Below, piece by piece: positions 36,043 through 62,518 of a stretch of DNA of 64,000 nucleotides. Positions within the stretch are counted from its first letter, which is position 1, and the number at the start of each line of letters is the position of its first letter. The position numbers and the translations under genes are program-made. Origin of the DNA: an uncultured Flavobacteriaceae bacterium (GTDB lineage: Bacteria; Bacteroidota; Bacteroidia; Flavobacteriales; Flavobacteriaceae); assembly GCA_947494715.1 (NCBI GenBank), contig CANLWG010000001.1:1013380-1077379 (forward strand), read 5' to 3'. A model generated the notes under the pieces. That model saw only the letters and a program-made list of their open reading frames with translations. It was not told the origin of the DNA and did no database searches.

Positions 36043-36101
36043 ATGCTTACAAAGGTTTATGGTAGTGCCGTTTTTGGTGTGGAGGCCACGACCATAACCG
36101 T
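36043..36101 (+). pseudogene. comM: comM/yifB, first fragment (codons 1-20), split by element 1
   Basis: The first 19 codons (MLTKVYGSAVFGVEATTIT) plus two bases of the next are a typical ComM/YifB start. The frame then enters element 1, and translation would stop at 36135 after 30 codons. The matching continuation is at 48507, after the element. Joining at the shared GT rebuilds the codon for Val20 and the usual 'TITVEVNVDRG' text. ComM is a Mg-chelatase-like AAA+ helicase that helps branch migration in natural transformation. The gene is broken as it stands but every base seems to be kept. Confidence 0.9.
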
Positions 36102-36117
36102 CGAGATTATAACTAAT
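36084..36117 (+). other. Left attachment site of element 1
   Basis: The comM/element junction is at the dinucleotide GT (36100-36101). The 16 bases after it are the element arm; they pair imperfectly (12 of 16) with the arm before the GT at the right end (48489-48504), so the rejoined attP is a partial palindrome centred on GT, as expected for a large serine recombinase. Confidence 0.75.
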
Positions 36118-36169
36118 ATGATAAAACAATTTTAGTTATTCGTATCCGTTAAACCTAAAAGGACGGATA

Positions 36170-37807
36170 ATGTTAGCTATCTATTGTAGGATATCACAGG
36201 AGAAGGAGGAAGGTAAGGATAGGTCGATTGACTATCAAAGGCAGACGGGTATCGAATTGGCCAAAAAATTATACCTGCCCTACAAAATTTATACAGATGA
36301 AGGAATAAGTGGTACTTGGCCAATATCTCAAAGACCTGCCTTCTTTGAGCTACTCTCCGACATACTCGCCAAAAACAGCAAAATTACGACCGTTTTCGCC
36401 TTCGACCCAAGCAGATTGTACCGTAGCGACGAAACAAGGCTAAACTTTCTGACCGCCGTAAAGAAAAGAAACATTGAGCTGTATTTTAACAATGGCATTT
36501 TCGATTGGTCAGACCCCTACATGGAATTTATGGGAAAAGTTCTATCGGCAACCGATGTACTTCACGTTGATATAACAAAGCTAAAGGTAAAAGGGGTTCT
36601 TAAGGAAAGGTCTAAAAAGGGAAAGGTGCACGGGGTAATGCCGTATGGCTACCAGAGGGATGAAAACGAAAAAATGATACCTGACCCTGAGGAGGCCGAG
36701 GTTATAAAGCTCATCTACAAATGGTCTTTAGAGGATATGGGATATACAGCTATATCCCAAAAGCTTAATGAAATGGAAGTGCCTACTCGATACAATAAAT
36801 ATGGGGGTACTTATGAAGTTGATATAAATAGAAATAATTACCTCCCAAAGAAAAAAGTTATCAAGGACAAGGGAAAGGCCAAATGGGTAAGTGGAACTAT
36901 AAAGAATATTCTGCACAATGACACCTATACGGGTATACGGAGATTTGGCGACGTAGAGTTTTCAATACCTGCCATTATAGACAAGGCCACTTTTGACAAC
37001 GTTGGAAAAAATATAGAGAAACGAAGAAAAAAGAGCGGTAAAAAGAACTTCCATAAGTATTTATTGAACGACCTTGTTTTTTGCTCAAAGTGTGGTAAGC
37101 GTTATACGGGGAGGGAGGTCAACGCTCATTTTTATTACCGTTGTACCAGCAGGATAACTAGAGGGGCTAGTTGTGGAAACAGAGGTATTAGGATGGTGGT
37201 TATGGACACCCTTATATGGGGAAGATTCTTTAAATCCAAAGAGTTATCTGTACTTGTGGAGAAGCATCTAAAAGACAACTCAAATAACGAGAAAATAAAC
37301 CAATTAGAGGTTAATTTAGGGACTTTTGAGAGGAGTCTGGACAGTTTGTCCAAAGAGCGCGGGAACGCTGTTAGATTAGCTGTACAAGGGCTTTTAAAAG
37401 AGCGGGATATAGAGCCAGAATTGGCACGGATAGACGGAGCGATTTTAGACCTGAAAACCAAGTCAAAAAATGTTAGGGAGCAATTAAACAGTTACTCAAA
37501 AGCCGATAAAAGATTAGATGAGATAGGCACGGACTTAAACCGGATAAAAACAAGCACTTCATTTATTGATAAACAGAAGCTTTTGCGAAAATATATCAAG
37601 TCCATTACAATATCCTATAAAGAGGATTGGTACACTCTGGATATTGAGTTTACTATTACTGGTATGCCAATGGAAAAATATGAGCTTGATAAAGACTACA
37701 AATTGGCTGTACAGGTCGATGACTCAGGCAACCGTATTGTTATACATCTAAAGACGGGAGAGATAACCTACCATCCTAAGACCGACGTCTATTTCGGGGA
37801 ATTATAG
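36170..37807 (+). CDS. Large serine recombinase (integrase) of element 1
   Basis: This is a 545-residue recombinase. The N-terminal resolvase domain (about 1-150) has catalytic Ser9 in 'AIYCRISQEKEEG' and 'DEGISGTWPISQRPAFFELL'. The recombinase domain (about 160-300) has 'KVHGVMPYGYQ' and 'TIKNILHNDTYTG'. A zinc ribbon (about 303-345) has CSKCGK and a distal Cys pair; then come a long coiled coil (about 370-470) and a C-terminal tail. It starts 68 bp from the left end, the normal place for an integrase acting on its own attachment site. The C-terminal 180 residues are nearly the same as in element 2's recombinase while the catalytic half is different, which fits their different target sites. 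Confidence 0.93.
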   Translation: MLAIYCRISQEKEEGKDRSIDYQRQTGIELAKKLYLPYKIYTDEGISGTWPISQRPAFFELLSDILAKNSKITTVFAFDPSRLYRSDETRLNFLTAVKKRNIELYFNNGIFDWSDPYMEFMGKVLSATDVLHVDITKLKVKGVLKERSKKGKVHGVMPYGYQRDENEKMIPDPEEAEVIKLIYKWSLEDMGYTAISQKLNEMEVPTRYNKYGGTYEVDINRNNYLPKKKVIKDKGKAKWVSGTIKNILHNDTYTGIRRFGDVEFSIPAIIDKATFDNVGKNIEKRRKKSGKKNFHKYLLNDLVFCSKCGKRYTGREVNAHFYYRCTSRITRGASCGNRGIRMVVMDTLIWGRFFKSKELSVLVEKHLKDNSNNEKINQLEVNLGTFERSLDSLSKERGNAVRLAVQGLLKERDIEPELARIDGAILDLKTKSKNVREQLNSYSKADKRLDEIGTDLNRIKTSTSFIDKQKLLRKYIKSITISYKEDWYTLDIEFTITGMPMEKYELDKDYKLAVQVDDSGNRIVIHLKTGEITYHPKTDVYFGEL

Positions 37808-37872
37808 TGTGGTAGAATTCTTATAAGTTTTAAAGATTTGCTAATTTGGCTAGCAGTTAGATACACGACCAA

Positions 37873-38382
37873 ATGATAAACCAACTTGGCATAAAGCTAT
37901 TGAAGAACATATTCGCTATAATAGGCTTTACTGCGCCTTTAGTGACTTCGCTCAATTGGAAATATAATGCTGTTTTTGTTTTTGCAGGTTTATCGCTATC
38001 GGCAATAGCATATTTATTAGTGGAGTTGTACGAAATTAACCACAAAAAATATTTGAAAGTCAAAGGTCGTGTCCCGGGATATGGTTTATACGAAGGCGCA
38101 AATATCATTAGAATACAATCAAATCCAAAGATTCCCAAGGACAGTTTACTTACGTTAATGACGAAGGGCTCTGGAATTGCTAACCCCATTTGTATTCTTA
38201 AAATAATTGAATCAGTTAAAGGTGAAGAAATTCAAGCAATACAGGTACTCCCAACTGCGGGTGATTTAGATTTAAGCACATATTTTATTGACTCCAATAA
38301 GCTTAACAACCTTTATGTTACGGTAATTATAAAGGAAACAGAATTAGAAATAATAAAATCAATAATCAATGGACATTTATAG
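37873..38382 (+). CDS. Unrecognised membrane protein, element 1 cargo
   Basis: This is a 169-residue protein with two N-terminal membrane segments (about residues 9-28 and 33-54) and a soluble C-terminal domain of about 110 residues rich in beta strands. I recognise no family. It overlaps the next gene by 14 bp, so the two probably act together. It lies directly behind the recombinase, in the slot where element 2 carries its ATPase-nuclease. Confidence 0.6.
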   Translation: MINQLGIKLLKNIFAIIGFTAPLVTSLNWKYNAVFVFAGLSLSAIAYLLVELYEINHKKYLKVKGRVPGYGLYEGANIIRIQSNPKIPKDSLLTLMTKGSGIANPICILKIIESVKGEEIQAIQVLPTAGDLDLSTYFIDSNKLNNLYVTVIIKETELEIIKSIINGHL

Positions 38383-38758
38383 GGTCGTGGAAATAATCAC
38401 AGGAACTAAAGTTATTTTGAACTGTGGTAGAGAACAAAAAATTTCACTTGGAGATAAATTCGAGATATATGGTTTAACCGAAGTATTGGTCGACCCAGAA
38501 ACTGAAGAAGAATTGGGGAAAGCGGAAATAATAAGAGGAAAAGGCGAAGTCACCAATTTACAAGACAAATTATGTACAATCGAATCCTACCTCAAGGAAA
38601 GCCAATATGGCTCTAGAAAAATTATCCGAAGAACCAGCAGTCCTTTCGGAAGCATCTTTAATCAACCCTCAACTGAAGAAGAAATAACAGCGGAACCATT
38701 GCTTAAAAGGTTTGAAGATATACAAATAGGCGATTACGCTAGGAAATTAGATTTTTAG
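38369..38758 (+). CDS. Small beta-barrel-like soluble protein, element 1 cargo
   Basis: This is a 129-residue protein without signal or membrane segment. The first half, 'VVEIITGTKVILNCGREQKI' and 'SLGDKFEIYGLTEVLVDPET', resembles the small beta domain seen at the C-terminus of FlgT-like proteins ('v-x-G-x-x-V-x-L-N-x-G ... v-G-D-x-F-x-v-y'). The second half is charged. It is translated with the membrane protein before it. Its function is unknown. Confidence 0.55.
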   Translation: MDIYRVVEIITGTKVILNCGREQKISLGDKFEIYGLTEVLVDPETEEELGKAEIIRGKGEVTNLQDKLCTIESYLKESQYGSRKIIRRTSSPFGSIFNQPSTEEEITAEPLLKRFEDIQIGDYARKLDF

Positions 38759-38883
38759 TCGATATACCCGAGATATTTTAATAGAGCAGCTATCAGAATA
38801 ACGGCTATACCTATTCTAGTTGCCCACTTGCCTAGAGTACTATGGAATATCCAAAATCTAGTATCGTTCTCGTCTCCGAACAT
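38755..38883 (-). CDS. Possible 42-residue single-span membrane peptide
   Basis: A minus-strand frame starts with ATG at 38883 and encodes a charged N-terminus (MFGDENDTRF), a middle with WIFHSTLGKWATR and one hydrophobic segment (IGIAVILIAALLKYLGY). Its stop overlaps the convergent stop of the gene at 38758. TATATTTA lies just upstream as a possible -7 box. Composition is protein-like, but nothing else supports it. The remainder of 38884-39099 holds no gene I can see. Confidence 0.4.
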   Translation of the reverse strand: MFGDENDTRFWIFHSTLGKWATRIGIAVILIAALLKYLGYID

Positions 38884-39099
38884 TTGCTAAATATAGCTAA
38901 TCATTAATTTAATTGCTTCCAATTATTTATACGCCCAAAATCTAAGTTTAAGTCCTTAGTCAGCTTAGGAATCGTTTATCTATTAAATCGAATGAGTTTT
39001 TCGTATATGTAATAAGTTTTCTACCTTGTATTTTACAAGTGCAGTATAGTTGTTAACTATATTCAATTATTAAGTGGATTTTGATCCGTCTTTATTTAA

Positions 39100-39696
39100 A
39101 TGAGTCATCAACACGAAACAAATAGAAAAAAAGAGCCCTTAATAGATAAGCGGCTAGCAGGTCTTGGAAAATTTACCAGCCAATTCTTGTATTTGTTGTT
39201 GATAACTACAATTCTTTTATATGCCGCAATTACACCAAACGAACTTGCAGCCTTACCTGAAGAAAAAAGATTTCTTCTAAAACCCGAAATAATCTGGATG
39301 CTCTTACCGAGCTTTCAGTTAGCGGTAATTGCAATATTATTAGGAAGTATGATTGCTACAAGGGACTTAATCTTCTCATTAAAAAATCCACACGTGCCGG
39401 ACGAAATACCAAATTTCTTTGATATGTTAAGATATCAAAATAGGGAATTTGGATACTCCCAGGTTAACTTTAACTTACTTGCAATTATCCCTTATTTCTC
39501 TTATCAGATATTCATTTTATTGAACTTCACATATGGAGTTTATCATGCTTATTTACGAACCACATTTGAAAACAAAATTCATTGGGAACTCTTACTTATT
39601 AACGGTTTTTTGATTCTTCTTATCAGCATACGTTTGTATGATAACATCGGGTTTAAAGTAAGGAGATTCGCTAGTAAATTCAAAAAACAGAAATAA
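39100..39696 (+). CDS. Four-span membrane protein, element 1 cargo
   Basis: This is a 198-residue protein with a charged cytoplasmic N-terminus (about 25 residues), membrane segments at about 28-46, 67-87, 122-142 and 159-178, and a basic C-terminal tail (RRFASKFKKQK). I recognise no family. It has its own upstream gap of about 200 bp and is not coupled to the previous pair. It occupies the variable slot between the recombinase and the first 51-bp site. Confidence 0.55.
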   Translation: MSHQHETNRKKEPLIDKRLAGLGKFTSQFLYLLLITTILLYAAITPNELAALPEEKRFLLKPEIIWMLLPSFQLAVIAILLGSMIATRDLIFSLKNPHVPDEIPNFFDMLRYQNREFGYSQVNFNLLAIIPYFSYQIFILLNFTYGVYHAYLRTTFENKIHWELLLINGFLILLISIRLYDNIGFKVRRFASKFKKQK

Positions 39697-39816
39697 AAGT
39701 AAATCCACATAACAAATGATATAGTGCATGGCATTTTAATATAGTAGGCTCTTATAGTCAGGTGCAAGCCAAGTTATGATATAATCATAGATGACATTGA
39801 AAGGTCTCAGAGTGTT

Positions 39817-39867
39817 CTAAAATTTTTATGGGTATCCTTATAAATGGGAGAGCCTCCAATACTGTCC
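39817..39867 (+). repeat. 51-bp cassette site, type I (element 1, recombinase side)
   Basis: Begins CTAAAATTTTT and ends AATACTGTCC. The site at 57880-57930 (opposite strand) in element 2 has the same length and matches at roughly 42 or more positions, including shared outer flank GTCTCAGAGTGTT. It has the same two ends as the type II site at 40469-40519, with a different middle (34 of 51 identical). The pair stands in direct orientation around the gene at 39920. Confidence 0.8.
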
Positions 39868-39893
39868 ATAGCCGAAAATGGTCATCAAAAAGT

Positions 39894-39901
39894 TATCTTT
39901 G
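39894..39901 (+). promoter_or_regulatory. -7 box of the cassette gene
   Basis: TATCTTTG fits TAnnTTTG and lies 18 bp before the ATG at 39920, inside the 51-bp sites, so the cassette gene brings its own promoter. Confidence 0.5.
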
Positions 39902-39919
39902 CAAAAAGAAACAAACTAT

Positions 39920-40438
39920 ATGGAAAATACTTTAACATTTCAAAACTCTCCCTCTGTGGTAATAGCTTCAAACACTTTTGTTAATGTTCCTGTAATCTTG
40001 AGATATGAGGACATCAACCTTATTGAAGTTGTACAGGAGCAGAGTTTGGAATATACTACTCAGATACCGATTTACCATCAAGACGGCACTTATCTTGCGA
40101 AAGTAACTGGCAATAGAATGTACCCTACCGAGGATGGTAAAAAAGCGGGACTCAAAATTGAAAAATATCACGGCCTATGGGTCTGCAAAATGGAGAATAG
40201 AACTTTGTTTGAAATTGAGCAAGGTACGGGAGATTTCTTTAAAGCTTCGGCTGAATTGTACACACCTGACGGATATTTTGTAAAATGCACAGATGCAGGC
40301 ACTCCAAGTCTAATAGATATTCATGGTAACGCTCTTAAATTGGGCGGTTTGGTTTTGTCAGGAAATACATTTAACGGGTGTAGTGTAGGAGTGTGGCTCA
40401 AAAAGGACGGAGCATTAGCAATTGGAGTAAATGAGTAA
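39920..40438 (+). CDS. Unrecognised protein in the 51-bp-site cassette of element 1
   Basis: The ATG at 39920 (MENTLTFQNSPSVVIASNTF) is preferred because the upstream in-frame ATG (39878) lies before the -7 box. The 172-residue protein is soluble and beta-rich, with 'LEYTTQIPIYHQDGTYLAKV', 'TRNLFEIEQG'-like and 'CTDAGTPSLIDIHGNALKLG' stretches, ending 'NGCSVGVWLKKDGALAIGVN'. I know no family for it. It is the only gene between the two 51-bp sites. Confidence 0.6.
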   Translation: MENTLTFQNSPSVVIASNTFVNVPVILRYEDINLIEVVQEQSLEYTTQIPIYHQDGTYLAKVTGNRMYPTEDGKKAGLKIEKYHGLWVCKMENRTLFEIEQGTGDFFKASAELYTPDGYFVKCTDAGTPSLIDIHGNALKLGGLVLSGNTFNGCSVGVWLKKDGALAIGVNE

Positions 40439-40468
40439 CCACCAATCTTGAAGAGGTCATAGGATGGT

Positions 40469-40519
40469 CTAAAATTTTTACGGGGTACTATATATCCAGA
40501 CCGACCCCAAATACTGTCC
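40469..40519 (+). repeat. 51-bp cassette site, type II (element 1, resolvase side)
   Basis: Begins CTAAAATTTTT and ends AATACTGTCC; contains an inner dyad GGGGT...ACCCC. About 46 of 51 bases match the reverse complement of 57550-57600 in element 2. The small resolvase gene starts 115 bp downstream. Confidence 0.8.
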
Positions 40520-40634
40520 TTACCCTTATTCACACGCTTTTTGTATTACGTCGAGTTTAATTAACATGTCAGAAACGGACGTTGCAGTCTTGTAATATTT
40601 GTGCTAATTTGCCGTTATACAATAAATGCATGGC

Positions 40635-41285
40635 ATGAACTACATCGGATATTACAGGGTCTCGACGAAAGAGCAAGGGGTAAGCGGTCTAGGTCTGGCC
40701 TCTCAGCAGGAGAGCGTCAGGCGTTATATCTCCTCCGTTAATGGTAATCTCATTGAGGAGTTTACGGACGTTGCTAGCGGTAAAGCGGACAATAGGGAGA
40801 ACCTAAACAATGCTATCATTGCCTGCCAGAAGTATAAGGCCGTGCTAGTGGTTAAGAAGCTTGACAGGCTATCGAGAGGAGGCTTTAAGATAGCGGTACG
40901 CCTCGATGAGTTGGGCATAGATTATATAGAGTCCGACAGCCCCAATGACAATGAACTACTAAAGAACCTAAAGCTAGCGATAGCAAAGGATGAGAGGCAA
41001 AAGATTAGTGAGCGTACCAAGGCAGCACTAGCCATTAGAAAGTCTCAGGGCGTTAAGCTCGGCAATCTAAAGAACCTGACCGATGAGGGCAGGCTTAAAG
41101 GCTCTGAGGCCATGCGTTTGAAGAAAGAGCTCAATGAGAACAACCGACGAGCTAGAGCCCATGCCATGACCCTACGAAAGGATGGTATGACCCTACAGCA
41201 GATAGCCCATGAATTGAACACACACGGCTTCCAGACCTCCAGAGGTAAGGAGTTTTCTCCTACTCAGGTAAGCAGACTATTGTAG
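40635..41285 (+). CDS. Small serine recombinase (resolvase/invertase) of element 1
   Basis: This 216-residue protein starts at ATG 40635 (MNYIGYYRVSTKEQGVSGLG); another ATG lies 9 bp upstream. The resolvase domain has catalytic Ser in RVSTKEQ, 'VLVVKKLDRLSRGGFKIAVR' and 'AIAKDERQKISERTKAALAI'. The C-terminal helix-turn-helix is in 'MTLQQIAHELNTHGFQTSRG'. It is of the small type that acts on nearby paired sites, so the 51-bp sites just upstream or the TGGCACA repeats just downstream are candidate targets. Confidence 0.9.
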   Translation: MNYIGYYRVSTKEQGVSGLGLASQQESVRRYISSVNGNLIEEFTDVASGKADNRENLNNAIIACQKYKAVLVVKKLDRLSRGGFKIAVRLDELGIDYIESDSPNDNELLKNLKLAIAKDERQKISERTKAALAIRKSQGVKLGNLKNLTDEGRLKGSEAMRLKKELNENNRRARAHAMTLRKDGMTLQQIAHELNTHGFQTSRGKEFSPTQVSRLL

Positions 41286-41584
41286 TGTGCCACAACTTAG
41301 AAAGTGTGTGCCAGTTATTTTACTACGTTTTGGCACAGTAAAACTTAATGTTTATAGGGGTTAAGGTGGATTGTGCCACTTTGCACCTTAATTTTAGGCA
41401 CTCCTCCTATATAGTATACATATACTGTCTTAGGAGGGTAAAAACCCTATTTGATAGTGTGTATAGTATATATATATAAATATTAAAATATATATATAAT
41501 AGTGGCACAACCTCTGGGAAGCCCCGTATTTACTGAGAAGTTCTGTGCCACTTTGGTAATCCCCGAAATGGCACAGGTGGCACA
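41286..41584 (+). repeat. Cluster of eight TGGCACA/TGTGCCA repeats with AT-rich core
   Basis: Copies lie at 41286, 41307, 41331 (reverse), 41372, 41513 (reverse), 41544, 41569 (reverse) and 41578 (reverse). Between the two groups is a strongly AT-rich tract with runs of TATATATA (about 41461-41512). Repeats around an easily melted tract are the layout of iteron origins or of resolvase res sites. The whole 41286-41897 gap has no gene that I can support. Confidence 0.65.
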
Positions 41585-41840
41585 AGATGACACGGATACT
41601 TACCGAGAGGGTGTACGGTCGTACATTTTTATGCGTGATTTATATCCCCACAGACCATCTTACCAGACCTCAATTTAGATGCCCTTAATATAGTACCTGA
41701 CATGACCGTAGTCATGGATGGCAATGTCAATTTGTTATAAATATAACAATTGGTTAAAAATATAACATTTTATATTGAAATGAGAAGAAAAATAACACCT
41801 TTATGACATAAAAATACCCTATTTATCCATAAATGGAAAC

Positions 41841-41871
41841 AAAAAAGCCCCATACAATTAAATATAGGGCT
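41841..41871 (-). terminator. Terminator of the element 1 operon
   Basis: Read on the minus strand, AGCCCTATA and TATGGGGCT form a stem followed by six T, 26 bp beyond the stop of the 81-residue gene. Element 2 has a matching terminator after its 77-residue gene (56151-56180). Confidence 0.75.
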
Positions 41872-41897
41872 ATATAAGTACTGAGCGGAGTGCGTGG

Positions 41898-42143
41898 TTA
41901 GGTCTCGGCACTTGCTTTGAACTTTTTGACCAGTTCCTTAATCTGACTCTCAGTAATCCCATGTTTGGTATAAAGGTCATTTTTGGCGGTAATGTGGTTC
42001 CCCTGTACCCGTCGTGCTAGGTAGAAACAAACCAAATTGGCCTCCTCCCTTACTTTTGGGGTCATGGTCAGCATTCCTGACCGCTCCAGATTGAGCAGTA
42101 ATTGGGTACGGTTATGTACTTGTATTAATTTTGGTGTAAGCAT
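41898..42143 (-). CDS. Conserved 81-residue element protein (with 55883-56116)
   Basis: This is a small soluble, helical protein, very close to the 77-residue protein of element 2: 'MLTPKLIQVHNRTQLLLNLE' and 'KHGITESQIKELVKKFKA' are shared. The C-terminal part looks like a small helix-turn-helix. It is the last gene of the operon in both elements and its strong conservation while the big enzyme is swapped suggests a core job, such as a directionality factor or replication accessory (inference). I recognise no family. Confidence 0.75.
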   Translation of the reverse strand: MLTPKLIQVHNRTQLLLNLERSGMLTMTPKVREEANLVCFYLARRVQGNHITAKNDLYTKHGITESQIKELVKKFKASAET

Positions 42144-42188
42144 AATTTATTTAGGGCTTTAAATTGTTATTGATTTTCTACTTGACGG

Positions 42189-44567: not shown

Positions 44568-45130
44568 GTCCTACTTTTTAAAAGTTCTATAACTTCTTGC
44601 TCAGACAGTTTTTTATGGTCTCCAAAGAGCATAATCTCTCCCTTTTCAGCTACGATTGCACATCCATTTATTGAATACCCGTACCAAACATCATATAGCC
44701 CATTGACAGGTAGCTTTTCTTTTCTTATGTAGTCAGTCAACAAAGAGCTGTTCAATTGAGCCCTTAAGTCATCTATACGGCTACCATAGGTATTCTCATG
44801 GACATTATCCCCCTCCCTGACCATTACGTAAGGCGTTATACCGCACATATCAAACCAGTATACCAGTCGTCTGAATGAGTACACTCCTGATTTAAGAAGT
44901 CTAAATTTGAACGACCTCCACGGGCTGTATTTTGGCTCATTGGCTATATATACCTCATTAGGTAGGCTACCAGTCTCATTGTAAATCTTTAAAGCGTACT
45001 CCTTAACTGCTCGAATAATCTCGGCCTTTGAGTAGCATCTCTTAGTAAGCTTATGCCTTACTCCTCTGTGTTTTTTACGACTGTCAAACACGCTGTTTAA
45101 CTTCTCGTTTATCATTACTTTTATTTCCAT
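44564..45130 (-). CDS. Unrecognised 188-residue protein, element 1 only
   Basis: This is a basic N-terminus (KKHRGVRHKLTKRCYSKAEI) followed by helical text with 'LPNEVYIANEPKYSPWRSFK' and a C-terminal beta part ending 'KKLSEQEVIELLKSRT'. It may bind DNA. It has no counterpart in element 2, where the gene at this place is fused into or replaced by the large helicase. Its stop overlaps the primase-VirE start, so the two are likely partners. Confidence 0.6.
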   Translation of the reverse strand: MEIKVMINEKLNSVFDSRKKHRGVRHKLTKRCYSKAEIIRAVKEYALKIYNETGSLPNEVYIANEPKYSPWRSFKFRLLKSGVYSFRRLVYWFDMCGITPYVMVREGDNVHENTYGSRIDDLRAQLNSSLLTDYIRKEKLPVNGLYDVWYGYSINGCAIVAEKGEIMLFGDHKKLSEQEVIELLKSRT

Positions 45131-45140
45131 ATCATATTTT

Positions 45141-45485: not shown

Positions 45486-45486
45486 C

Positions 45487-45852: not shown

Positions 45853-45854
45853 GT

Positions 45855-46079: not shown

Positions 46080-46104
46080 ACATTTTTGGTTGAGTTAAGA
46101 CACC

Positions 46105-46165
46105 AGTAGCCCTATCCGAGCTCAGCCTAATATGGCAGATAGCCCAAACTCGGTAGAGTTACCAA
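46105..46165 (-). ncRNA. Structured leader between the 170- and 74-residue genes, element 1
   Basis: On the minus strand this 126-bp gap can form CCGAG/CTCGG (46149-46153 with 46116-46120) and, as an alternative or pseudoknot, CTATC/GATAG (46138-46142 with 46112-46116). The same place in element 2 (50994-51063) also folds strongly with a different sequence. It may be a cis-acting RNA or a protein-binding site controlling the downstream genes. Confidence 0.35.
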
Positions 46166-51691: not shown

Positions 51692-51694
51692 ATA

Positions 51695-55384: not shown

Positions 55385-55472
55385 ACGCTGTCCAGAGAGG
55401 GCGGCACATCAAATATGTAACATGGATATCAAAAGCATCGGAGAGCCTGATGCGTCAATTAAATAAACAATT

Positions 55473-55844
55473 ATGGATTTATCGGAGAAGTACAAAGTTG
55501 TCGATGACAACAAACAGGTAATAGCGGATGCGCTAACGAACAGCCGAAAAGGTAGGGGTCTATTTGGTTTTGACCCTGACGAGATTCTAAGGACGGTAAA
55601 GGATGCCATAGGATTTGAGGTAAGGCCAGTCGTACAATACCTCATGGACTTGGGAGTCATTGCATACTTGGATTTAGAGGACGACGAGGTAGAGTATTTC
55701 AACTCGTTTCTGGAGCCTGACCATTGTCGGGACAATGACCATGCGTACTACGTGGCCTTGGAATACAGGAAGGACATTGATGACTTGGACTACTACCTCG
55801 TAAGGAGGTTAAGGGAAGGGTTATCAAAAACCAATATCGGATAG
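55473..55844 (+). CDS. Unrecognised 123-residue protein, element 2 operon
   Basis: This is an acidic soluble protein with 'LSEKYKVVDDNKQVIADALT', 'FGFDPDEILRTVKDAIGFEV' and 'YLDLEDDEVEYFNSFLEPDH'. The spacing suggests a small winged-helix-like fold, but I recognise no family. It lies between the helicase and the conserved 77-residue gene; element 1 has no copy. Confidence 0.6.
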   Translation: MDLSEKYKVVDDNKQVIADALTNSRKGRGLFGFDPDEILRTVKDAIGFEVRPVVQYLMDLGVIAYLDLEDDEVEYFNSFLEPDHCRDNDHAYYVALEYRKDIDDLDYYLVRRLREGLSKTNIG

Positions 55845-55882
55845 TCCGATATTGAATACTAACACTAAAATCTTACTATAAA

Positions 55883-56116
55883 ATGTTGACACCAAAATTA
55901 GTCCAAGTGTTTGGACGCACCCAATTACTTTTAAATCTGGAACGCTCAAATATGTTGACCATGAGCCGAAAGGTAAAGGATGAAGCTCATTTAGTATGTG
56001 CATATCTCGCTAGAAGATTGCAAGGGAATCACGTTATTGCTTGCAGCGATATGTATAAAAAACATGGGATTACTGAGACCCAGATAAACGCTCTGGTCGA
56101 GAAGTTCAAAGCGTAG
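55883..56116 (+). CDS. Conserved 77-residue element protein (with 41898-42143)
   Basis: It is strongly conserved with element 1: 'MLTPKLVQVFGRTQLLLNLE', 'YLARRLQGNHVIA' and 'KHGITETQINALVEKFKA'. It is all-helical, basic and closes the operon. It is a candidate recombination directionality factor or replication accessory, by size and conservation only. Confidence 0.75.
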   Translation: MLTPKLVQVFGRTQLLLNLERSNMLTMSRKVKDEAHLVCAYLARRLQGNHVIACSDMYKKHGITETQINALVEKFKA

Positions 56117-56118
56117 TG

Positions 56119-56180
56119 CCGGGATTAAAACGCTTCATCCCGGTATTTCTAGCCCTGTATGTCAAAATATAGGGCTTTTT
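56119..56180 (+). terminator. Terminator of the element 2 operon
   Basis: Two hairpins follow the 77-residue gene: CCGGGAT/ATCCCGG (56119-56125, 56137-56143), then AGCCCTGTAT/ATATAGGGCT (56151-56160, 56167-56176) with a T tail. The second matches the terminator of element 1 in sequence. Confidence 0.8.
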
Positions 56181-56191
56181 GCTCAAAAAGT

Positions 56192-56495
56192 GTACCATTT
56201 TCAACATTAATTTTATCATAATGGTACATAAGTAATTGGTTGTTCTACAAATGTAGAGCTAATGTCAGGTACTATATATGGGGATAGGCTATTAAGATGG
56301 TCTGTAAGTATATAAATCACGCACAAAAAAGAGTCGTGTACAGGTTTGTATCGAAATGCGGAAACTATAGCCCATCTTGTAGAAATTTTAAATATCTCTT
56401 TATAGTCTTTCAAATAAATTTTTCACCCAGTTCAGGCCAATGCTAACGGGCTTTCCTAGAGATTGAGGGGGTCAAAGTCAAATTTTTCACCCAGT
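56192..56495 (+). repeat. Dyad and direct repeats upstream of the element 2 resolvase
   Basis: A dyad GTACCATT (56192-56199) / AATGGTAC (56220-56227), and a 16-bp perfect direct repeat AAATTTTTCACCCAGT at 56416-56431 and 56480-56495. The 56181-56659 gap has no gene I can support. By position it corresponds to the TGGCACA repeat region of element 1 and may be its functional counterpart (origin or res site). Confidence 0.5.
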
Positions 56496-56659
56496 ACCCA
56501 TTTTTGACCATAATTTCACCTATTAAATCCACCCGTTTGTACCACTATCAAAGTATACCCCATACCTGTACGGGTATTATGCCTCCGTTCATCGAATAAA
56601 TAGCATGAGAATTGCACACGTCGAGAATTGTACTTAGATTACCTATCTAAATCTTAACT

Positions 56660-57247
56660 ATGAGAGCGAAATACATCAGGGTCTCCACCACGGAGCAGAA
56701 CACGGCCAGACAGAAAGAGGACGGCTTTAAGCTGTTCATTGACAAGGTTAGCGGTTCCGTACCGTTCAAAGAGAGACCTCAGGGCACAAAGCTATTAAAT
56801 GATGACTCCATTACGGAGGTACACGTACAGTCCATTGACCGACTGGGGCGTAATACTATGGACATACTCTCCACAATTAAGGAGCTTACCGCCAAAGGCG
56901 TAAACGTAGTCTCCCAGAAGGAGGGTCTCAGTACCCTCGTCGATGGTAAGGAGAGCCCTACCTCTAAACTGGTTCTATCCATCATGGCTACCCTATCGGA
57001 GTTTGAGCTTAGCCTAATTAAGGAAAGGCAGAGAGAGGGTATCCAGAGAGCTAAGGAGAGAGGGGCTTACAAAACCAACGGAGGTTCTAAACCATTGTCC
57101 ATTAAACAGCTATTGGCAAAGCCTAAGAACGCCAAATGCGCTAAGGAGCTAAGGTCTGGGGAGTCCATCCGCAGGGCTGCTAAACTTGCAGGTGTCTCAC
57201 ATACTACGGCAATGAAGATAAAGAACGCTATTAGAGCTACTCCCTAA
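56660..57247 (+). CDS. Small serine recombinase (resolvase) of element 2
   Basis: This 195-residue protein has catalytic Ser9 in 'AKYIRVSTTEQNTARQ', then 'VHVQSIDRLGRNTMDILSTI', 'SIMATLSEFELSLIKERQRE' and a C-terminal helix-turn-helix in 'SIRRAAKLAGVSHTTAMKIK'. It is a classic resolvase/invertase layout but not closely similar to the element 1 resolvase. It lies beside the type II 51-bp site, with only the 87-residue gene between them. Confidence 0.9.
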   Translation: MRAKYIRVSTTEQNTARQKEDGFKLFIDKVSGSVPFKERPQGTKLLNDDSITEVHVQSIDRLGRNTMDILSTIKELTAKGVNVVSQKEGLSTLVDGKESPTSKLVLSIMATLSEFELSLIKERQREGIQRAKERGAYKTNGGSKPLSIKQLLAKPKNAKCAKELRSGESIRRAAKLAGVSHTTAMKIKNAIRATP

Positions 57248-57500
57248 CCCTAGACCATCCGTCTACGGGTATGTTATCGTACCTGCCTACATCCATTATC
57301 ATAAGCACATAGTTACTTGGGTACACATAGCAAAGCCTGAGGTAATGCTCCGTAGCCTCCAAGTAAAAGCCCTTCATTGATAGGGGTTTGTTATCTCCTA
57401 CCTTCATATTCTCCAGAGCCAACGTATACCTATGCTCCCCAATCTCGCTGAGCAGCTTCCTTATAATCCTCTTATCGTAGTTCCTAAACTTAATGGACAT
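57237..57500 (-). CDS. Unrecognised 87-residue protein, element 2
   Basis: This is a basic N-terminus ('KFRNYDKRIIRKLLSEIGEH') followed by beta-rich text ('HYLRLCYVYPSNYVLMIMDV'). It is convergent with the resolvase and overlaps its end by 11 bp. The small size and overlap are typical of mobile-element genes. I recognise no family. Confidence 0.55.
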   Translation of the reverse strand: MSIKFRNYDKRIIRKLLSEIGEHRYTLALENMKVGDNKPLSMKGFYLEATEHYLRLCYVYPSNYVLMIMDVGRYDNIPVDGWSRVRE

Positions 57501-57549
57501 AATCCAAAATTATGGATATTATCCATATAAATCAACAAAAATAACCCAA

Positions 57550-57600
57550 GGACAGTATTCGGGGTCGGCCTGTATATATAGTACCCCTCAAAAATTTTAG
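57550..57600 (-). repeat. 51-bp cassette site, type II (element 2)
   Basis: On the minus strand it begins CTAAAATTTTT and ends AATACTGTCC, with the inner GGGGT...ACCCC dyad of type II. It faces the resolvase side of the element, as does the type II site of element 1. Confidence 0.8.
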
Positions 57601-57610
57601 ACGTATTTTC

Positions 57611-57618
57611 TACCTTTG
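57611..57618 (+). promoter_or_regulatory. -7 box of the element 2 cassette gene
   Basis: TACCTTTG fits TAnnTTTG, 28 bp before the ATG at 57647 and inside the pair of 51-bp sites. Confidence 0.5.
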
Positions 57619-57646
57619 GAATAGTCGAACCAAACCAAATAAAACT

Positions 57647-57829
57647 ATGTCGCCATATTTAATTATTACAATACTTGGAGCTTTACTAACAGCTTGCGGT
57701 ATTATTCTATATGATAAGAATGGAGGTACGTCTGAGAACAACGACCTGAGGATACAAGGTTTTTGCACCATCTGTATAATGATTGGATTAGGTGCGTTTG
57801 GATATGGGTTGTCTACCTTTTATGGCTAG
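57647..57829 (+). CDS. 60-residue two-span membrane protein in the 51-bp-site cassette of element 2
   Basis: It has two membrane segments (about residues 4-21 and 38-57) joined by a polar loop (YDKNGGTSENNDLRIQG). It has its own -7 box and is the only gene between the two 51-bp sites. It is unrelated to the cassette gene of element 1 and points in the opposite direction relative to the element. Small two-span peptides can be toxins or membrane sensors; nothing decides here. Confidence 0.55.
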   Translation: MSPYLIITILGALLTACGIILYDKNGGTSENNDLRIQGFCTICIMIGLGAFGYGLSTFYG

Positions 57830-57879
57830 TTGATTAACCATACACCTGTTCGATTATACCTTAGTTACCCCAGAGTTGG

Positions 57880-57930
57880 GGACAGTATTCAAGACCCTAC
57901 CATTTATAAGGATACGCATAAAAAATTTAG
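57880..57930 (-). repeat. 51-bp cassette site, type I (element 2)
   Basis: On the minus strand it begins CTAAATTTTTT and ends AATACTGTCC, preceded by GTCTCAGAGTGTT exactly as at the type I site of element 1 (39817-39867). It stands on the large-recombinase side of the cassette. Confidence 0.8.
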
Positions 57931-57997
57931 AACACTCTGAGACTTTTTTGTTTAAACATTGAATTGCTTTTTAGCAATCGTTCTTTAGCACAGCATT

Positions 57998-60046
57998 TTA
58001 CTTCACAAGTCTTAATTGAGCAGATATCTTCTCATCAATTAATTCCTCATACTCCTTCTCAAATTTGGTTTTAACTGATATGTCTTTTATGTTAAGCTTA
58101 TTGGACAAATACCCTAGTTTCCTATTGTTTTGTTCAATTAATTCTGACCATTCCACCACATAAACTTCTATGTCTTTTTCTGTCTTTTTCTCGTATAGAA
58201 AAGGGTTGTCAGGATAAGTTTCTCTTCTCGATTTCGTTTGCGATTTAGCAAATTTGGTAAGCTTTGATGAAATTAAAACAAGTTTATATTTTACCTTTTC
58301 TGATGGCAAAGCAGAATGTTGTTCTATAGTAAATGCATACCTATTTATTTGATTCAGTTCCTTCTCACTAATAGCACATTTCGGTGCTTTAAGTTCTACT
58401 ACCATTATTTCTCTTACGCCAGAATCCGTTATTTTTTCATTAAAGAAAAATAGGTCGGTAATATCGTTGAGCCCCTCGCTATCAACTTCAATCAAATTCT
58501 TATCTTCCTCGGTTGGTTCATACTCGAAATATTTTTTCCTTAATTCTGTCAAAATATTCCCAATTTTTTTGTCCGACCATAATTTTGGTGTTCCATTATA
58601 ATTTTCTCCGAATAACCATAATTCGTCTTCAACGATTTTGTGAAGTTGGCTTCGTTCTTTTAAATGTTGTGAAATATCTCCATAGGTCAATTCGTGCAAA
58701 AAGTTCAGAAACTCTATTTTATCCGCAACGATACTTGCGAACTGAACAACATTTTCTAAATCTGTTTTCTCCAAAAGAAGATGAAATTTTTCTAAGCTAT
58801 CGTCAGATAATTTTAAGATTTTGTCAAAAATGTATTCGATGTTGCCATTACCAATTGCTTTATCAAGTAAGGGATAAAGGAAGTTTCTAATTTTATCATC
58901 TTTTTGAATAAGCTGATGCTCATCTTCAAGCAGATAAGCAACCTTTTTAAATAGAACTTCTTGTGATTTTGACGCAGGATGCTCGTCATTTTGATATGGG
59001 TAAAACCTATCTTTCTCTAAATTAGCGAGGAACTTTTCAAATCGTTTGTTCTTTGCTTTAAAGAAATCGTTGATTGTTTCTTTAATAGTGTTCTTGATAT
59101 TCTTTATTTCCGCTTCTCCGAGAGTCTCTAAATCCAGATTCCGAAATAAATCGGTATTTAGTAATGGAGATTCTATATAAATAAACCAAGTGCCTAAATC
59201 AGGCGTGTACCAATCCGAAGAATAAGTATATTCATGTGCTACGCTCTTAAGACCTGCATTGTCGGTTTGAAAAAAAACTTTGACCTTATTTAACGATGAT
59301 TTGATATTGTAGAAGTAAAAGTTTAGCTTATGACTTTCGCCTTTTTTGCTTAAATAATCTATACTTTTCTTGATGGGTTTGCCTATAACAAATTGTTCTC
59401 TTTTAAGCTCTTTTCCGTTAACTACGAAATTGACCGTATCATGAAAAATTTCATAAGGGTAATGCTCAAAAACCGCTTGTTCAATCTTATCTTCTAGAAA
59501 GTTTTCGTGAAGCTTATTTCTTTTTGCAAGCTTTTCCGGTTTATTGTGATGTAGTTGTTCAATAACAACTTTATAAAATGTCTTTTGTTGCTCTTTGAGA
59601 TATTCATAATCGACCTTGAATTCTGTCTCTTCCAGTTGGGCGTTATTAAAATCAGTTGTGTCAATGCTAAACATTGTTTTTGAGAATTCCTTTTTTTCCT
59701 TATCAAATCCGATGGTTTCAATGTGCATTAATTCTCCAATTTGTAAAGAGCTAAATCTTCCTATTCCTTGACCTTTTTGTTTAACTGTGGTTCCTATCTC
59801 TAGTATCTTATTATCAAACTCGTTAAATGGAACCCCATATCCATCATCAACGATTTCAATGCTTTTAATAGGAGATTTAATATCTGCTTGGTTCACATAT
59901 TCAACATTAATCTCAATCTTTTTGGAATCCGCCTGAATTGAATTATTTATTAATTCACGGAATGCCTGAAACGTATCTCTATATTTTGTTAATAGGTCTT
60001 TTATTACCCTTGTATTCGTCGTAATTTTTTTTGTTGTCGATTTCAT
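57998..60046 (-). CDS. GHKL ATPase fused to a PD-(D/E)XK-like nuclease, element 2 cargo
   Basis: This is a 682-residue protein. The N-terminal GHKL (MutL/Hsp90/MORC-type) ATPase has the N box 'AFRELINNSIQADSKKIEI' (Glu31, Asn35), G1 'IVDDGYGVP' (residues 65-73) and G2 'KGQGIGRFS' (91-99). A helical middle follows. The C-terminal part has 'DITDLFFFNEK' and 'MVVELKAPK', i.e. Asp531 ... Glu551-x-Lys553, the core of PD-(D/E)XK nucleases. ATPase-nuclease single genes of this kind are known or suspected anti-phage effectors. It lies in the cargo slot next to the recombinase, in the same direction, 76 bp behind it. Confidence 0.8.
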   Translation of the reverse strand: MKSTTKKITTNTRVIKDLLTKYRDTFQAFRELINNSIQADSKKIEINVEYVNQADIKSPIKSIEIVDDGYGVPFNEFDNKILEIGTTVKQKGQGIGRFSSLQIGELMHIETIGFDKEKKEFSKTMFSIDTTDFNNAQLEETEFKVDYEYLKEQQKTFYKVVIEQLHHNKPEKLAKRNKLHENFLEDKIEQAVFEHYPYEIFHDTVNFVVNGKELKREQFVIGKPIKKSIDYLSKKGESHKLNFYFYNIKSSLNKVKVFFQTDNAGLKSVAHEYTYSSDWYTPDLGTWFIYIESPLLNTDLFRNLDLETLGEAEIKNIKNTIKETINDFFKAKNKRFEKFLANLEKDRFYPYQNDEHPASKSQEVLFKKVAYLLEDEHQLIQKDDKIRNFLYPLLDKAIGNGNIEYIFDKILKLSDDSLEKFHLLLEKTDLENVVQFASIVADKIEFLNFLHELTYGDISQHLKERSQLHKIVEDELWLFGENYNGTPKLWSDKKIGNILTELRKKYFEYEPTEEDKNLIEVDSEGLNDITDLFFFNEKITDSGVREIMVVELKAPKCAISEKELNQINRYAFTIEQHSALPSEKVKYKLVLISSKLTKFAKSQTKSRRETYPDNPFLYEKKTEKDIEVYVVEWSELIEQNNRKLGYLSNKLNIKDISVKTKFEKEYEELIDEKISAQLRLVK

Positions 60047-60122
60047 TTCCTAGTATGTTGGGCTACCCACTTATAAAAACTAAGATAGCAAATCTTTAAT
60101 GTTTGTATGGATTTTACTGCCC

Positions 60123-61748
60123 CTATATTTCACCAAAATATATGTCAGTCTTAGGATGGTAAGTTAACTCTCCTGTCTTTAGATGGACTACTATACGGTT
60201 GCCTGAGCTATCCACCTGTATTGCCACTTTATAAAGCTTGTCAATCTCATAGGTCTCTACTGGCATACCATTAATACTAAACGCAATCTCTAGAGTGTAC
60301 CAACCCTCTCTATAGAGTATGGTAATTGACTTGATGTATTTCCTGATAATGTCCCGTTTATCGTTAAAAGAAGTACTCTTTTTTATTTGGCCTAAGTCCG
60401 TACCTATCTCGGCTACTTTCTTATCAATTTGCGAGTAACTGTCTAGTTGTTCCTTAACGTTTTTAACCTTAGTTTTTAGGTCTAGAATAGCCCTATCAAT
60501 ACGCTCCATTTCTGGCTGTATATCCTCCTCTTTTAACAGCCCTTTTATAGCCAATTTAACAGCGTTTTCACGCTCATTGGACAAACTGCCCAAAGCTCTC
60601 TCAAAGGTCGCTAAATCCGCCTCTAATTGCTCTATTTTCTCATTATTGGAGCTACTTTTTAAGTGCTCAGTTATTAGTTTTTGAAGCTCCGTAGTTTTAA
60701 AGAACCGCATCCATATAAAACTCTCCAGAACATCAATGTTTAGACTACGATTTCCGCAGTTTTCAGACTTGTACCGTTTGGAGGAGCACATATAGTAATT
60801 GTCCTTTTTATTGACTCTAGTCCTACCGTAGTAGTTCCTACCACACTTACCACAAATCAATAAACCTTTCAAGAGATACTTATGCTCTACTTTCTTCCCT
60901 GTATTGTTCTGGTTGTTCTTTAGATTGTCATTGACCTTGCTCCAATAGACCTCATCAAAAATTGCAGGGGCATCGTAGGTCTTACCTCCAAAATTGCGCT
61001 CCCCTTTATAGATAGGGTTCTTAATGATGCCTCTAATGGTATTGCCTGCCCACTTTATTTTTGACTTTTCCTTAGTGGTTAGTTTACCCGTGTGTTTGTT
61101 CTTAAAGGTCAAAGTACCAGTACCAATTTTGTTATAACGTGTTGGCACACCCTCAGCCTCTAATTTCTCAGCAAGGGAACGAGTACCCGTCCCTTTAAGG
61201 CTAAGCTCATAGATGAGGCGTACTACTTTTGCCTCCTCATCATCAATTACCAGATAACCCTCATCATCTTTGGTATATCCATAGGGAGGTATGCCATGAG
61301 CTTTACCCTCCTTGGCGTTGTCGGATAGTGATTTTTTGGTCTGGAAACTCTGTAAATGCGCTTGATAGCTATTAATAGCTGTCAGGATGGAGGACTGTAG
61401 AAAGTTGCTAGGGTCGTCCCAGTCCATCTCCTTATCCCCAAATACAACAGTTATTTTATGCCTTATTACAATGTCGGCAAAGACATGGAAGGTCATACTG
61501 TTTCTCTCTAACCTGTTCTGGTTTCTCATCCAGACAGTAGATATCTTACCAGTAGCTATATCCCTCATCAATTTGTCAAGTTGTGGCCTGTCCTTGATAT
61601 CGCTACGTCCACTAATTCCTTGTCCCTCATTGTAAACCTCATAAGGCAATTTGTATTTTTTAGCAAAGGACTTACCCTCTCTTAATTGGTTCTCCAGAGA
61701 GTTGCTCTCCTCATCCTCCCTAGAGAGTCGTATATAAATTCCTAGCAT
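60123..61748 (-). CDS. Large serine recombinase (integrase) of element 2
   Basis: This is 541 residues. Catalytic Ser9 is in 'LGIYIRLSREDEESNSLENQ', with 'GQGISGRSDIKDRPQLDKLM'. The recombinase domain has 'KAHGIPPYGYTKDDEGYLVI', the zinc ribbon 'LLICGKCGRNYYGRTR' and a distal CGN, then a coiled coil. From about residue 365 to the end it is nearly the same as element 1's enzyme, while the catalytic domain differs much more. The start codon is 69 bp from the comM junction, as in element 1. Confidence 0.93.
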   Translation of the reverse strand: MLGIYIRLSREDEESNSLENQLREGKSFAKKYKLPYEVYNEGQGISGRSDIKDRPQLDKLMRDIATGKISTVWMRNQNRLERNSMTFHVFADIVIRHKITVVFGDKEMDWDDPSNFLQSSILTAINSYQAHLQSFQTKKSLSDNAKEGKAHGIPPYGYTKDDEGYLVIDDEEAKVVRLIYELSLKGTGTRSLAEKLEAEGVPTRYNKIGTGTLTFKNKHTGKLTTKEKSKIKWAGNTIRGIIKNPIYKGERNFGGKTYDAPAIFDEVYWSKVNDNLKNNQNNTGKKVEHKYLLKGLLICGKCGRNYYGRTRVNKKDNYYMCSSKRYKSENCGNRSLNIDVLESFIWMRFFKTTELQKLITEHLKSSSNNEKIEQLEADLATFERALGSLSNERENAVKLAIKGLLKEEDIQPEMERIDRAILDLKTKVKNVKEQLDSYSQIDKKVAEIGTDLGQIKKSTSFNDKRDIIRKYIKSITILYREGWYTLEIAFSINGMPVETYEIDKLYKVAIQVDSSGNRIVVHLKTGELTYHPKTDIYFGEI

Positions 61749-61800
61749 ATCTGATAGCTTTGATATCGCTAAGATAGTAAAAAAGGGGCTTTACCTCCAC

Positions 61801-61838
61801 ATTGTACATAGTAGGAGATGTGGCTTTGGTCGGTGGTG
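61801..61838 (+). other. Right attachment site of element 2
   Basis: The element arm 61801-61816 leads into GATGTG (61817-61822) and then comM codons for ALVGGG. The reading frame is continuous with 49282-49287 when the element is removed. Confidence 0.75.
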
Positions 61839-62518
61839 GAGCCTACCCACAGCCCGGCGAGATTTCCCTTTCGCACAACGGCGTGTTGTTCTTGGATGAA
61901 CTACCTGAATTCAAAAGAGGGGTTCTGGAAGTGATGCGACAACCTTTGGAAGATCGGGAAGTGACCATTTCACGAGCAAGGTTTACGGTGACCTACCCCA
62001 GTAGTTTCATGTTGGTCGCCAGTATGAATCCTAGTCCAAGTGGGTATTTCAATGACCCCGATGCGCCTGTGACCTCTTCGCCAATGGAAATGCAACGGTA
62101 TTTGGGTAAGATTTCCGGACCGCTCCTGGACCGTATCGATATCCATATTGAAGTGACGCCCGTTCCTTTTGAAAAACTGTCCGAGGATCGAAAAGGGGAG
62201 GGTAGTGTGGAAATCCGGAAACGGGTTACGGCAGCACGGGAAATCCAGACGCAGCGATTTACAGAATTGGACAATGTGCATTACAATGCCCAAATGAATA
62301 CCAAACAGATCCGGGAATTCTGTAGGTTGGACGATGCTTCCAAGGAACTGCTCAAAAATGCTATGGAGCGGTTAAACCTCTCTGCCCGTGCCTACGACCG
62401 TATTTTAAAAGTCGCTCGAACTATTGCAGACCTTAACGGTTCCCATGAGGTAAAAGGCGAACATATTGGTGAAGCCATTCAATATCGGAGTTTGGATAGA
62501 GAAGGGTGGTTGGGCTAG
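61817..62518 (+). pseudogene. comM: comM/yifB, last fragment (to codon 511)
   Basis: It continues the AAA+ domain at 'DVALVGGGAYPQPGEISLSH' and contains Walker B 'GVLFLDELPEFKRGVLEVMR', the arginine-finger region 'SGPLLDRIDIHIEVTPVPFE' and the C-terminal helical domain 'SARAYDRILKVARTIADLNG'. Joined to the two upstream pieces without repeated core bases it gives 59+781+696 = 1536 bp, 511 codons plus stop, the usual ComM length. It has no start signal of its own. Confidence 0.92.

What the first reader, a model, noticed from the sequence alone, without database searches (positions are those of the whole stretch)
36043..62518. comM split twice, in frame, by two related serine-recombinase elements
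Three fragments of one comM gene (36043-36101, 48507-49287, 61823-62518) join with no lost or gained bases into 511 codons. Both junctions restore conserved ComM text (TITVEVNVD and SDVALVGGG). Two independent insertions of sister elements in one gene, facing opposite ways, point to a real preference for comM. As ComM helps chromosomal transformation, insertion may stop removal of the element by incoming DNA, and precise excision could switch competence back on, as with the Listeria comK prophage. That last point is inference.
Basis: partly seen in the sequence, partly recalled or inferred. Interest (0 to 1): 0.95.

Follow-up and report, generated by a model that had tools for sequence, protein, structure and literature searches.

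The report
Competence gene split by two elements
In this flavobacterial genome the DNA-uptake gene comM is cut into three in-frame pieces by two related 12.4-12.5 kb elements, each carrying its own insertion enzyme, so the cell would likely lose efficient natural transformation until both elements are cut out again.

Summary
Observation confirmed: three comM pieces join base-perfectly into 511 codons plus stop; two same-genus genomes carry comM intact with both sites empty, and no second comM was found here. Two integrative elements (E1 12,405 bp, E2 12,535 bp), each with a full-length large serine recombinase (LSR), sit at codon 20 (core GT) and codon 280 (core GA). Codon 280 is a hotspot: 31 of 44 related LSR loci outside this genome lie there, in at least four Bacteroidota families; one lies at codons 17-20, others in comEC, a RadC-type gene or DUF72 genes. 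comM as an LSR target was already reported (Durrant 2022). New here: one comM split twice, and mosaic integrases. Their recognition halves belong to different clades, but their coiled-coil/C-terminal halves are each other's closest relatives, which suggests a target swap within one element lineage. Most likely these are selfish elements that disable ComM; both would have to excise to restore it. A host-serving switch is not shown, and comM has decayed in two relatives bearing such elements or relics. New variant of a known kind.

The parts
36043..36101 (+). comM piece 1 (codons 1-19 and the first two bases of codon 20)
   Evidence: intact in congeners
48507..49287 (+). comM piece 2 (last base of codon 20 to codon 280), holds Walker A GPPGAGKT (motif recalled)
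61823..62518 (+). comM piece 3 (codons 281-511 + stop)
36102..48506 (.). Element E1, 12,405 bp, inserted at comM codon 20
49288..61822 (.). Element E2, 12,535 bp, inserted at comM codon 280 (49284-61818 if counted from the GA core)
36100..36101 (+). E1 left core dinucleotide GT (attL1)
   Evidence: only 2 bp shared; best palindrome centre of attP1 (15 of 22, next 13)
48505..48506 (+). E1 right core dinucleotide GT (attR1)
49282..49283 (+). E2 left core dinucleotide GA (attL2)
   Evidence: symmetry centre of 11 attPs; L/R cores agree in 10 of 11 pairs and 12 of 12 further pairs that could be read
61817..61818 (+). E2 right core dinucleotide GA (attR2)
36170..37807 (+). LSR1, 545 aa large serine recombinase of E1 (Resolvase, Recombinase, Zn ribbon; predicted coiled coil 372-443)
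60123..61748 (-). LSR2, 541 aa large serine recombinase of E2
40626..41285 (+). small serine recombinase (resolvase/invertase type) of E1
56660..57247 (+). small serine recombinase of E2
42189..44567 (-). E1 primase-helicase-like protein (BT4734-like N, VapE-like)
52175..55384 (+). E2 1069-aa DEAD/ResIII helicase protein, likely its replication protein (inferred)
41898..42143 (-). 81-aa protein shared with E2 (73%), candidate shared control factor (inferred)
55883..56116 (+). 77-aa E2 counterpart of the 81-aa protein
45141..46079 (-). E1 backbone genes of 114, 121 and 74 aa shared with E2 (47, 44, 66%)
51087..52039 (+). E2 counterparts (74, 125, 114 aa)
47112..47177 (+). 66-bp block identical to 50192-50257 of E2
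50192..50257 (-). 66-bp block identical to 47112-47177 of E1
57998..60046 (-). E2 cargo: 682-aa GHKL ATPase with weak restriction-enzyme-like region
   Evidence: no PADLOC match
47332..48402 (+). E1 cargo: 356-aa protein without family match

Best explanation
comM is cut into three in-frame pieces by two related integrative elements, E1 at codon 20 and E2 at codon 280, each carrying a full-length large serine recombinase that likely inserted it there by recombination at a two-base core (GT for E1, likely GA for E2), so ComM-dependent transformation would be off until both are excised. Shown: the pieces, the empty sites in congeners, the att symmetry, and the repeated use of codon 280 by this integrase family. 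Shown by phylogeny: LSR1 and LSR2 are mosaics, with target-recognition halves from two different clades and a common coiled-coil/C-terminal half. Inferred: an element lineage acquired a different recognition half and so could enter a comM already occupied at the other site (or the two integrases exchanged their C-terminal halves). Inferred: loss of ComM serves the elements by reducing their removal by incoming homologous DNA. Inferred: excision needs an unidentified directionality factor (RDF). Predicted, untested: the different cores GT and GA keep the two elements' ends from recombining with each other. Predicted: E2's reversed orientation follows from the core of its attP, because the central dinucleotide sets orientation in this enzyme class.
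For: Exact rejoining; intact comM in G199 and G200 behind the same upstream neighbour; no second comM. attP1 palindrome best on the GT core. attP symmetry over 11 codon-280 elements: mean 15.2 of 26 matches at one centre, next best 11.1, all others 5.5-9.6. The core (GA, AA or AG) agrees between left and right ends in 22 of 23 element pairs, G086 excepted. 29 of 40 LSR relatives from titled records lie at comM codon 280; L104 lies at codons 17-20 with the LSR nearest to LSR1's N half (58%). 14 of 397 same-family genomes, own included, have an LSR-family match at E <= 1e-40, and 11 of these 14 have it in a split comM. Mosaic: N part LSR1+L104 support 99.9 and LSR1+LSR2 rejected (p-AU 6e-56); C part LSR1+LSR2 support 100 and LSR1+L104 rejected (p 0.0048); identity rises between residues 334 and 384, around the foot of the predicted coiled coil. 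The host keeps comEC and dprA frames. A YifB/ComM mutant of Riemerella falls from 5.5e-5 to 1.3e-7.
Against: No excised circle or empty-site molecule could be looked for. Natural competence of this host is unknown, and competence is not universal in the family (PMC7965970 abstract). No RDF was identified. E2's own attP taken alone scored best at another centre (13 of 22, near the end of GATGTG); the GA core rests on the family alignment. Of 44 LSR relatives, 7 have no recognised split target and 5 sit elsewhere (comEC, RadC-type, DUF72 twice, a relic upstream of comM). Only one other insertion near codon 20 was found, in a MAG split over two contigs; its core, read by eye, lies about 9 bp from E1's. 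The C-half rejection of LSR1+L104 rests on few, divergent columns, with long branches.
Confidence: 0.75

Rival explanations
1. Host-serving switch: both elements excise in response to a signal, rebuild comM and turn transformation on, as described for the Listeria comK prophage.
For: Precise restoration is possible, both LSRs are full length, and the joined gene shows strong constraint: 67 synonymous against 4 nonsynonymous own codon changes, like the intact congeners (61:6, 92:11).
Against: The constraint is equally explained by recent insertion. comM is frameshifted and stopped in Galbibacter and gone but for its start in G075. Two independent excisions would be needed. The comK case is taken from a passage of another paper.
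Confidence: 0.12
2. Neutral landing pad: comM is used only because it is conserved DNA in a dispensable gene; loss of transformation brings the elements nothing.
For: Members of the LSR family also sit in DUF72 genes and next to other genes; the DNA coding SDVALVGGG is well conserved.
Against: comM, comEC and a RadC-type gene are hit by relatives; Durrant 2022 reports enrichment of LSR targets for DNA competence genes (passage).
Confidence: 0.25
3. The similarity of the LSR C-terminal halves reflects gene conversion between the two co-resident copies, not target swapping.
For: Both copies lie in one genome with 73-83% identical DNA from residue 384 on against 37-57% up to residue 333.
Against: The backbone proteins of 81/77 and 74 aa are about as similar as the C half (73, 66%), so the C half may simply be the common backbone; recent conversion should leave higher identity.
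Confidence: 0.35
4. Assembly artefact.
For: Draft genome of 72 contigs; the contig ends 1.5 kb beyond comM.
Against: E1's two ends form one symmetric attP and E2's fit the family's attP pattern, the DNA of E1 and E2 is largely different, and the same architecture recurs in independent assemblies.
Confidence: 0.02

Closest known systems
LSR elements in the 'magnesium chelatase/ATP-dependent protease' gene (Durrant et al. 2022, PMC10083194; passages seen)
   Same: Same enzyme class, very likely the same target gene; the paper says this gene is hit by 12.4% of predicted site-specific LSRs and that competence genes are enriched
   Different: The passages seen describe no gene with two elements, no second comM site and no integrase mosaic
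comM insertions of AbaR/AbGRI and other MGEs (Croucher 2016 PMC4774983; Mazzamurro 2024 PMC11472951; passages seen)
   Same: comM disrupted by mobile DNA; same proposed anti-curing logic
   Different: In the passages seen: Tn7-like AbaR islands and elements with another integrase, in species outside Bacteroidota; 'serine' does not occur in Croucher 2016
Listeria comK prophage A118 (passage in PMC4701971)
   Same: Serine-recombinase element inside a competence gene, restorable by precise excision
   Different: A phage in a regulator gene with reported excision; here no phage structural genes were found and there are no excision data
Heterocyst interruption elements (PMC4874684; passages seen)
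   Same: Functional genes interrupted; 10 of 87 genes carry several elements (nifD of Rivularia four); recombinase genes in either orientation
   Different: Excision there is tied to cell differentiation; here unknown, and both elements share one backbone

Membership tests
Large serine recombinase integrative element | Resolvase + Recombinase + zinc-ribbon integrase, full length | tested here: met
   the LSR1 model matches solved serine integrase complexes 9y66, 9dxh, 4kis (TM to query only 0.21-0.43; pTM 0.42)
Large serine recombinase integrative element | attP with inverted arms around a 2-bp core shared by attL and attR | tested here: met
   E1; E2 through the family alignment: (E2 alone is ambiguous)
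Large serine recombinase integrative element | Precise restoration of the target on excision | tested here: met
   in silico only; congeners give the empty site
Large serine recombinase integrative element | Integration/excision activity and an RDF | not testable with these tools
   no RDF recognised; shared 81/77-aa protein is a candidate only
Temperate phage | Capsid, terminase, portal or tail genes | tested here: not met
   no such match among 20 E1/E2 proteins in Pfam or 10 in PHROGs; some smaller ORFs not tested
ICE/IME | Relaxase or type IV secretion genes | tested here: not met
   no such Pfam match among the same 20 proteins
AbaR / Tn7-like comM island | DDE transposase set (tni genes) and Tn7-type ends | tested here: not met
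   no transposase match in Pfam among the 20 proteins; ends not compared with Tn7 ends
Regulated gene integrity (comK-like switch) | Regulated excision that restores the gene | not testable with these tools
   no reads or excised molecules available
Regulated gene integrity (comK-like switch) | Split gene kept free of disabling changes | tested here: inconclusive
   own comM constrained; decayed in Galbibacter and G075

The most novel reading that the evidence does not exclude
A double lock with one key: an element lineage swapped the target-recognition half of its integrase, so that a second copy could enter the same comM at a new site, while both integrases kept one coiled-coil/C-terminal control half and shared small genes. 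A single directionality factor would then release both elements together and rebuild comM, so two insertions act as one competence switch or as a backup lock against curing.
Probability: 0.13. Interest if true: 0.78.

Novelty: new variant of a known kind. Interest (0 to 1): 0.5.

Why it matters
It gives a natural case in which serine integrases appear to change their target by exchanging the recognition half while keeping the control half, with two related enzymes at two defined sites in one gene. That makes modular retargeting of LSRs directly testable, and it offers 22 natural element-end pairs with matched cores (GA, AA, AG) at one codon. It also extends the mobile-element-versus-transformation conflict within Bacteroidota, with comM, comEC and a RadC-type gene hit by one integrase family.

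Tried and rejected
Rfam over both elements: no match at E <= 0.1. PADLOC: no defence system; the weak Cas3b match of the E2 helicase and the DRT-type and CRISPR-associated PrimPol matches of the E1 primase fit shared domains. IMG/VR: 8 relatives of the LSR alignment, four of them distant (24-27%), one of the 8 beside comM, so the elements are not mainly catalogued as viruses. Phage and plasmid records: only matches under 60% identity (about 21-32% in the rows listed). The shared noncoding block: no plasmid match; its 17-bp core was found once in IMG/VR next to phage genes, without other similarity to E1/E2, and taken as chance. A first reading of the codon-280 core as GT (by eye) was dropped for GA after the symmetry analysis; G086 is the one pair that disagrees with GA (MAG, two contigs). 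Of 15 further right ends fetched, 12 could be paired; L110 and L102 gave no motif and for L101 only the right end was read. Trees: one search used 43 of 46 LSR rows (three short ones left out); one search used 37 of 46 (five short rows L089, L117, L121, L122, L124 and four long-branched rows L109, L116, L161, L162 left out). Genomes G041, G048, G147 and G194 were not counted as split because the breaks lie at contig ends. Mageeney 2020 (PMC7192596) is not held; regulated gene integrity is known to me from passages of PMC10111431. No paper on a comM with two LSR elements came up in the listings of searches; the library is incomplete.

Full report
Observation. The joined gene has exactly the length of comM in both same-genus genomes, G199 and G200, where it is one open frame behind the same upstream neighbour (88% and 82% identical DNA); downstream DNA is not conserved beyond 40 bp. 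The joined protein matches only the two large fragments of the own genome, and a domain search adds only two weaker matches elsewhere (probably RadA and Lon, my inference). 177 of 199 same-family genomes, own included, matched the joined protein.

The elements. E1 is 12,405 bp and E2 12,535 bp. Each has a full-length large serine recombinase starting within 80 bp of one end and reading inwards; in E1 it lies at the 5' side of comM, in E2 at the 3' side. The bodies are colinear in inverted sense. Shared backbone: proteins of 81/77 aa (73%), 74 aa (66%), 114 aa (47%), 121/125 aa (44%), and an identical 66-bp noncoding block inside a 135-bp region of 83% identity. Replication-type proteins, small recombinases and cargo differ. 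Eight other codon-280 elements share little with E1/E2 beyond the LSR and a small recombinase. No capsid, terminase, relaxase or secretion gene was seen among 20 proteins tested, so the mode of cell-to-cell transfer is unknown.

Attachment sites. E1's ends share only GT, and the reconstructed attP1 scores best as a palindrome around it (15 of 22, next best 13). For E2 the shared GATGTG leaves the crossover open, and E2's attP alone scored best at another centre (13 of 22). Eleven codon-280 elements aligned at comM give a clear symmetry centre at the GA of the Asp codon (mean 15.2 of 26 matches, next best 11.1, all others 5.5-9.6). The two bases at that place agree between left and right end in 10 of 11 pairs and in 12 of 12 further pairs, among them five AA and one AG pairs. 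The different cores of E1 and E2 should keep their ends from recombining with each other; this is inferred from the known role of the central dinucleotide (PMC3783163, passages).

Target preference. A scan of one genome per species with an LSR alignment found 40 loci. 29 lie at comM codon 280; in most the LSR is next to a comM piece, in L109 it is 4.8 kb away, and L096 is rearranged. L104, a Pricia MAG, lies at codons 17-20, with the 3' part on another contig. L124 is a truncated LSR just upstream of a comM start. L115 lies in comEC (PF03772), L118 and L119 in DUF72 genes. The other six have no recognised split target or too short a contig. Four more loci add two at codon 280 (L156, L164), one in an UPF0758 gene (L161; that UPF0758 means RadC is recalled) and one undetermined (L162). 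In all, 31 of 44 lie at codon 280. In the 199-genome survey at least 8 genomes including the own are split at codon 280 with such an LSR, and G018 at codon 294 by a more distant LSR. Distances between the comM halves in 21 genomes range from 6.8 to 66.7 kb, median 13.7 kb (from coordinates). Of six genomes searched whose LSR sits elsewhere, five have an intact comM (those of L108, L114, L117, L118, L120) and that of L111 shows only residues 272-511.

Orientation. E2, L095, L101 and L121 have the LSR at the 3' side of comM, facing inwards; most others have it at the 5' side. The three of these that are in the tree do not group (3 changes; L121 was too short), so orientation has changed more than once. 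The comM-strand core is GA in E2, L095 and the right end of L101. A dinucleotide change in attP is the simplest cause, since orientation depends on it (passage and reference title); this is inference. Cyanobacterial interruption elements also carry their recombinase genes in either orientation (PMC4874684 passages).

Integrase mosaic. LSR1 and LSR2 are 49% identical overall but unevenly: 37-57% DNA identity up to residue 333, 63-64% at 334-383, 73-83% from 384 on. With 37 rows, the N part (aa 1-355) joins LSR1 with L104 (99.9) and rejects LSR1+LSR2 (p-AU 6e-56); the C part joins LSR1 with LSR2 (100) and rejects LSR1+L104 (p 0.0048). The rise falls around the end of the zinc ribbon (298-352) and the foot of a predicted two-helix coiled coil (372-405, 411-443; mean pLDDT 83.8, pTM 0.42). 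[quoted passage not shown] So a shared control factor for both elements is possible but untested.

Function. In Riemerella anatipestifer (called Flavobacteriaceae in the papers) a transposon in the YifB/Mg-chelatase gene lowers transformation from 5.5e-5 to 1.3e-7 (PMC8459023 table passage), and this gene is the one called ComM in PMC7965970 (passage). The present host keeps comEC and dprA frames. Loss of ComM here is therefore likely to lower transformation, but competence of this host is unknown. The split comM is as constrained as in congeners (67:4 against 61:6 and 92:11 own synonymous:nonsynonymous changes), which fits recent insertion or occasional restoration alike. Against routine restoration: the Galbibacter comM has stops and frame breaks, and in G075, which had no comM match at E <= 1e-20, about the first 28 codons run into an LSR C-terminal remnant of this lineage (53% to LSR1), with an 81-aa protein relative (36%) nearby.

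Prior art and novelty. Durrant 2022 already names the magnesium chelatase/ATP-dependent protease gene as an LSR target (12.4% of predicted site-specific LSRs) and reports competence-gene enrichment (passages). Croucher 2016 and Mazzamurro 2024 treat comM disruption and its logic (passages). Genes with several interrupting elements are known in cyanobacteria. What I did not find described (listings of searches) is one comM split by two LSR elements, and the mosaic of their integrases. I therefore rate it a new variant of a known kind.

Noticed in passing
window 47112-47177 and 50192-50257: 66-bp noncoding block identical in E1 and E2 although flanking genes differ; a 26-bp motif (GGGATTTC...) recurs three times in E1 at 81-86 bp spacing. 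Candidate origin, operator or transfer site.
   Followed up: partly
window 48493-48507: E1's right end supplies an in-frame GTG/ATG, so that a ComM with a changed start could be read if E2 were absent.
   Followed up: no
L096:7472-9874: Salegentibacter tibetensis: one 801-aa frame fuses a serine integrase to the C-terminal half of ComM (Pfam finds both parts).
   Followed up: partly
L203 (G075), about 11000-11460: Relic: comM codons 1-28 run into an LSR C-terminal remnant with element-like genes nearby; no other comM match in that genome at E <= 1e-20.
   Followed up: yes
L077 (G018): comM split at codon 294 by a distant LSR (24%), with a further partial comM copy about 3 kb beyond.
   Followed up: partly
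L115, L161, L118, L119: Relatives of the comM integrases sit in comEC, an UPF0758/RadC-type gene and DUF72 genes.
   Followed up: partly
L124: Truncated LSR directly upstream of a comM start in a flavobacterial MAG.
   Followed up: no
G221 (L123), contig C1 927463-994158: The two comM halves of Muricauda sp. M10 lie 66.7 kb apart, the most of 21 genomes measured.
   Followed up: no
window 57998-60046: E2 cargo: 682-aa GHKL ATPase with a weak HSDR_N-like region; could be a defence gene of unknown type (no PADLOC match).
   Followed up: partly
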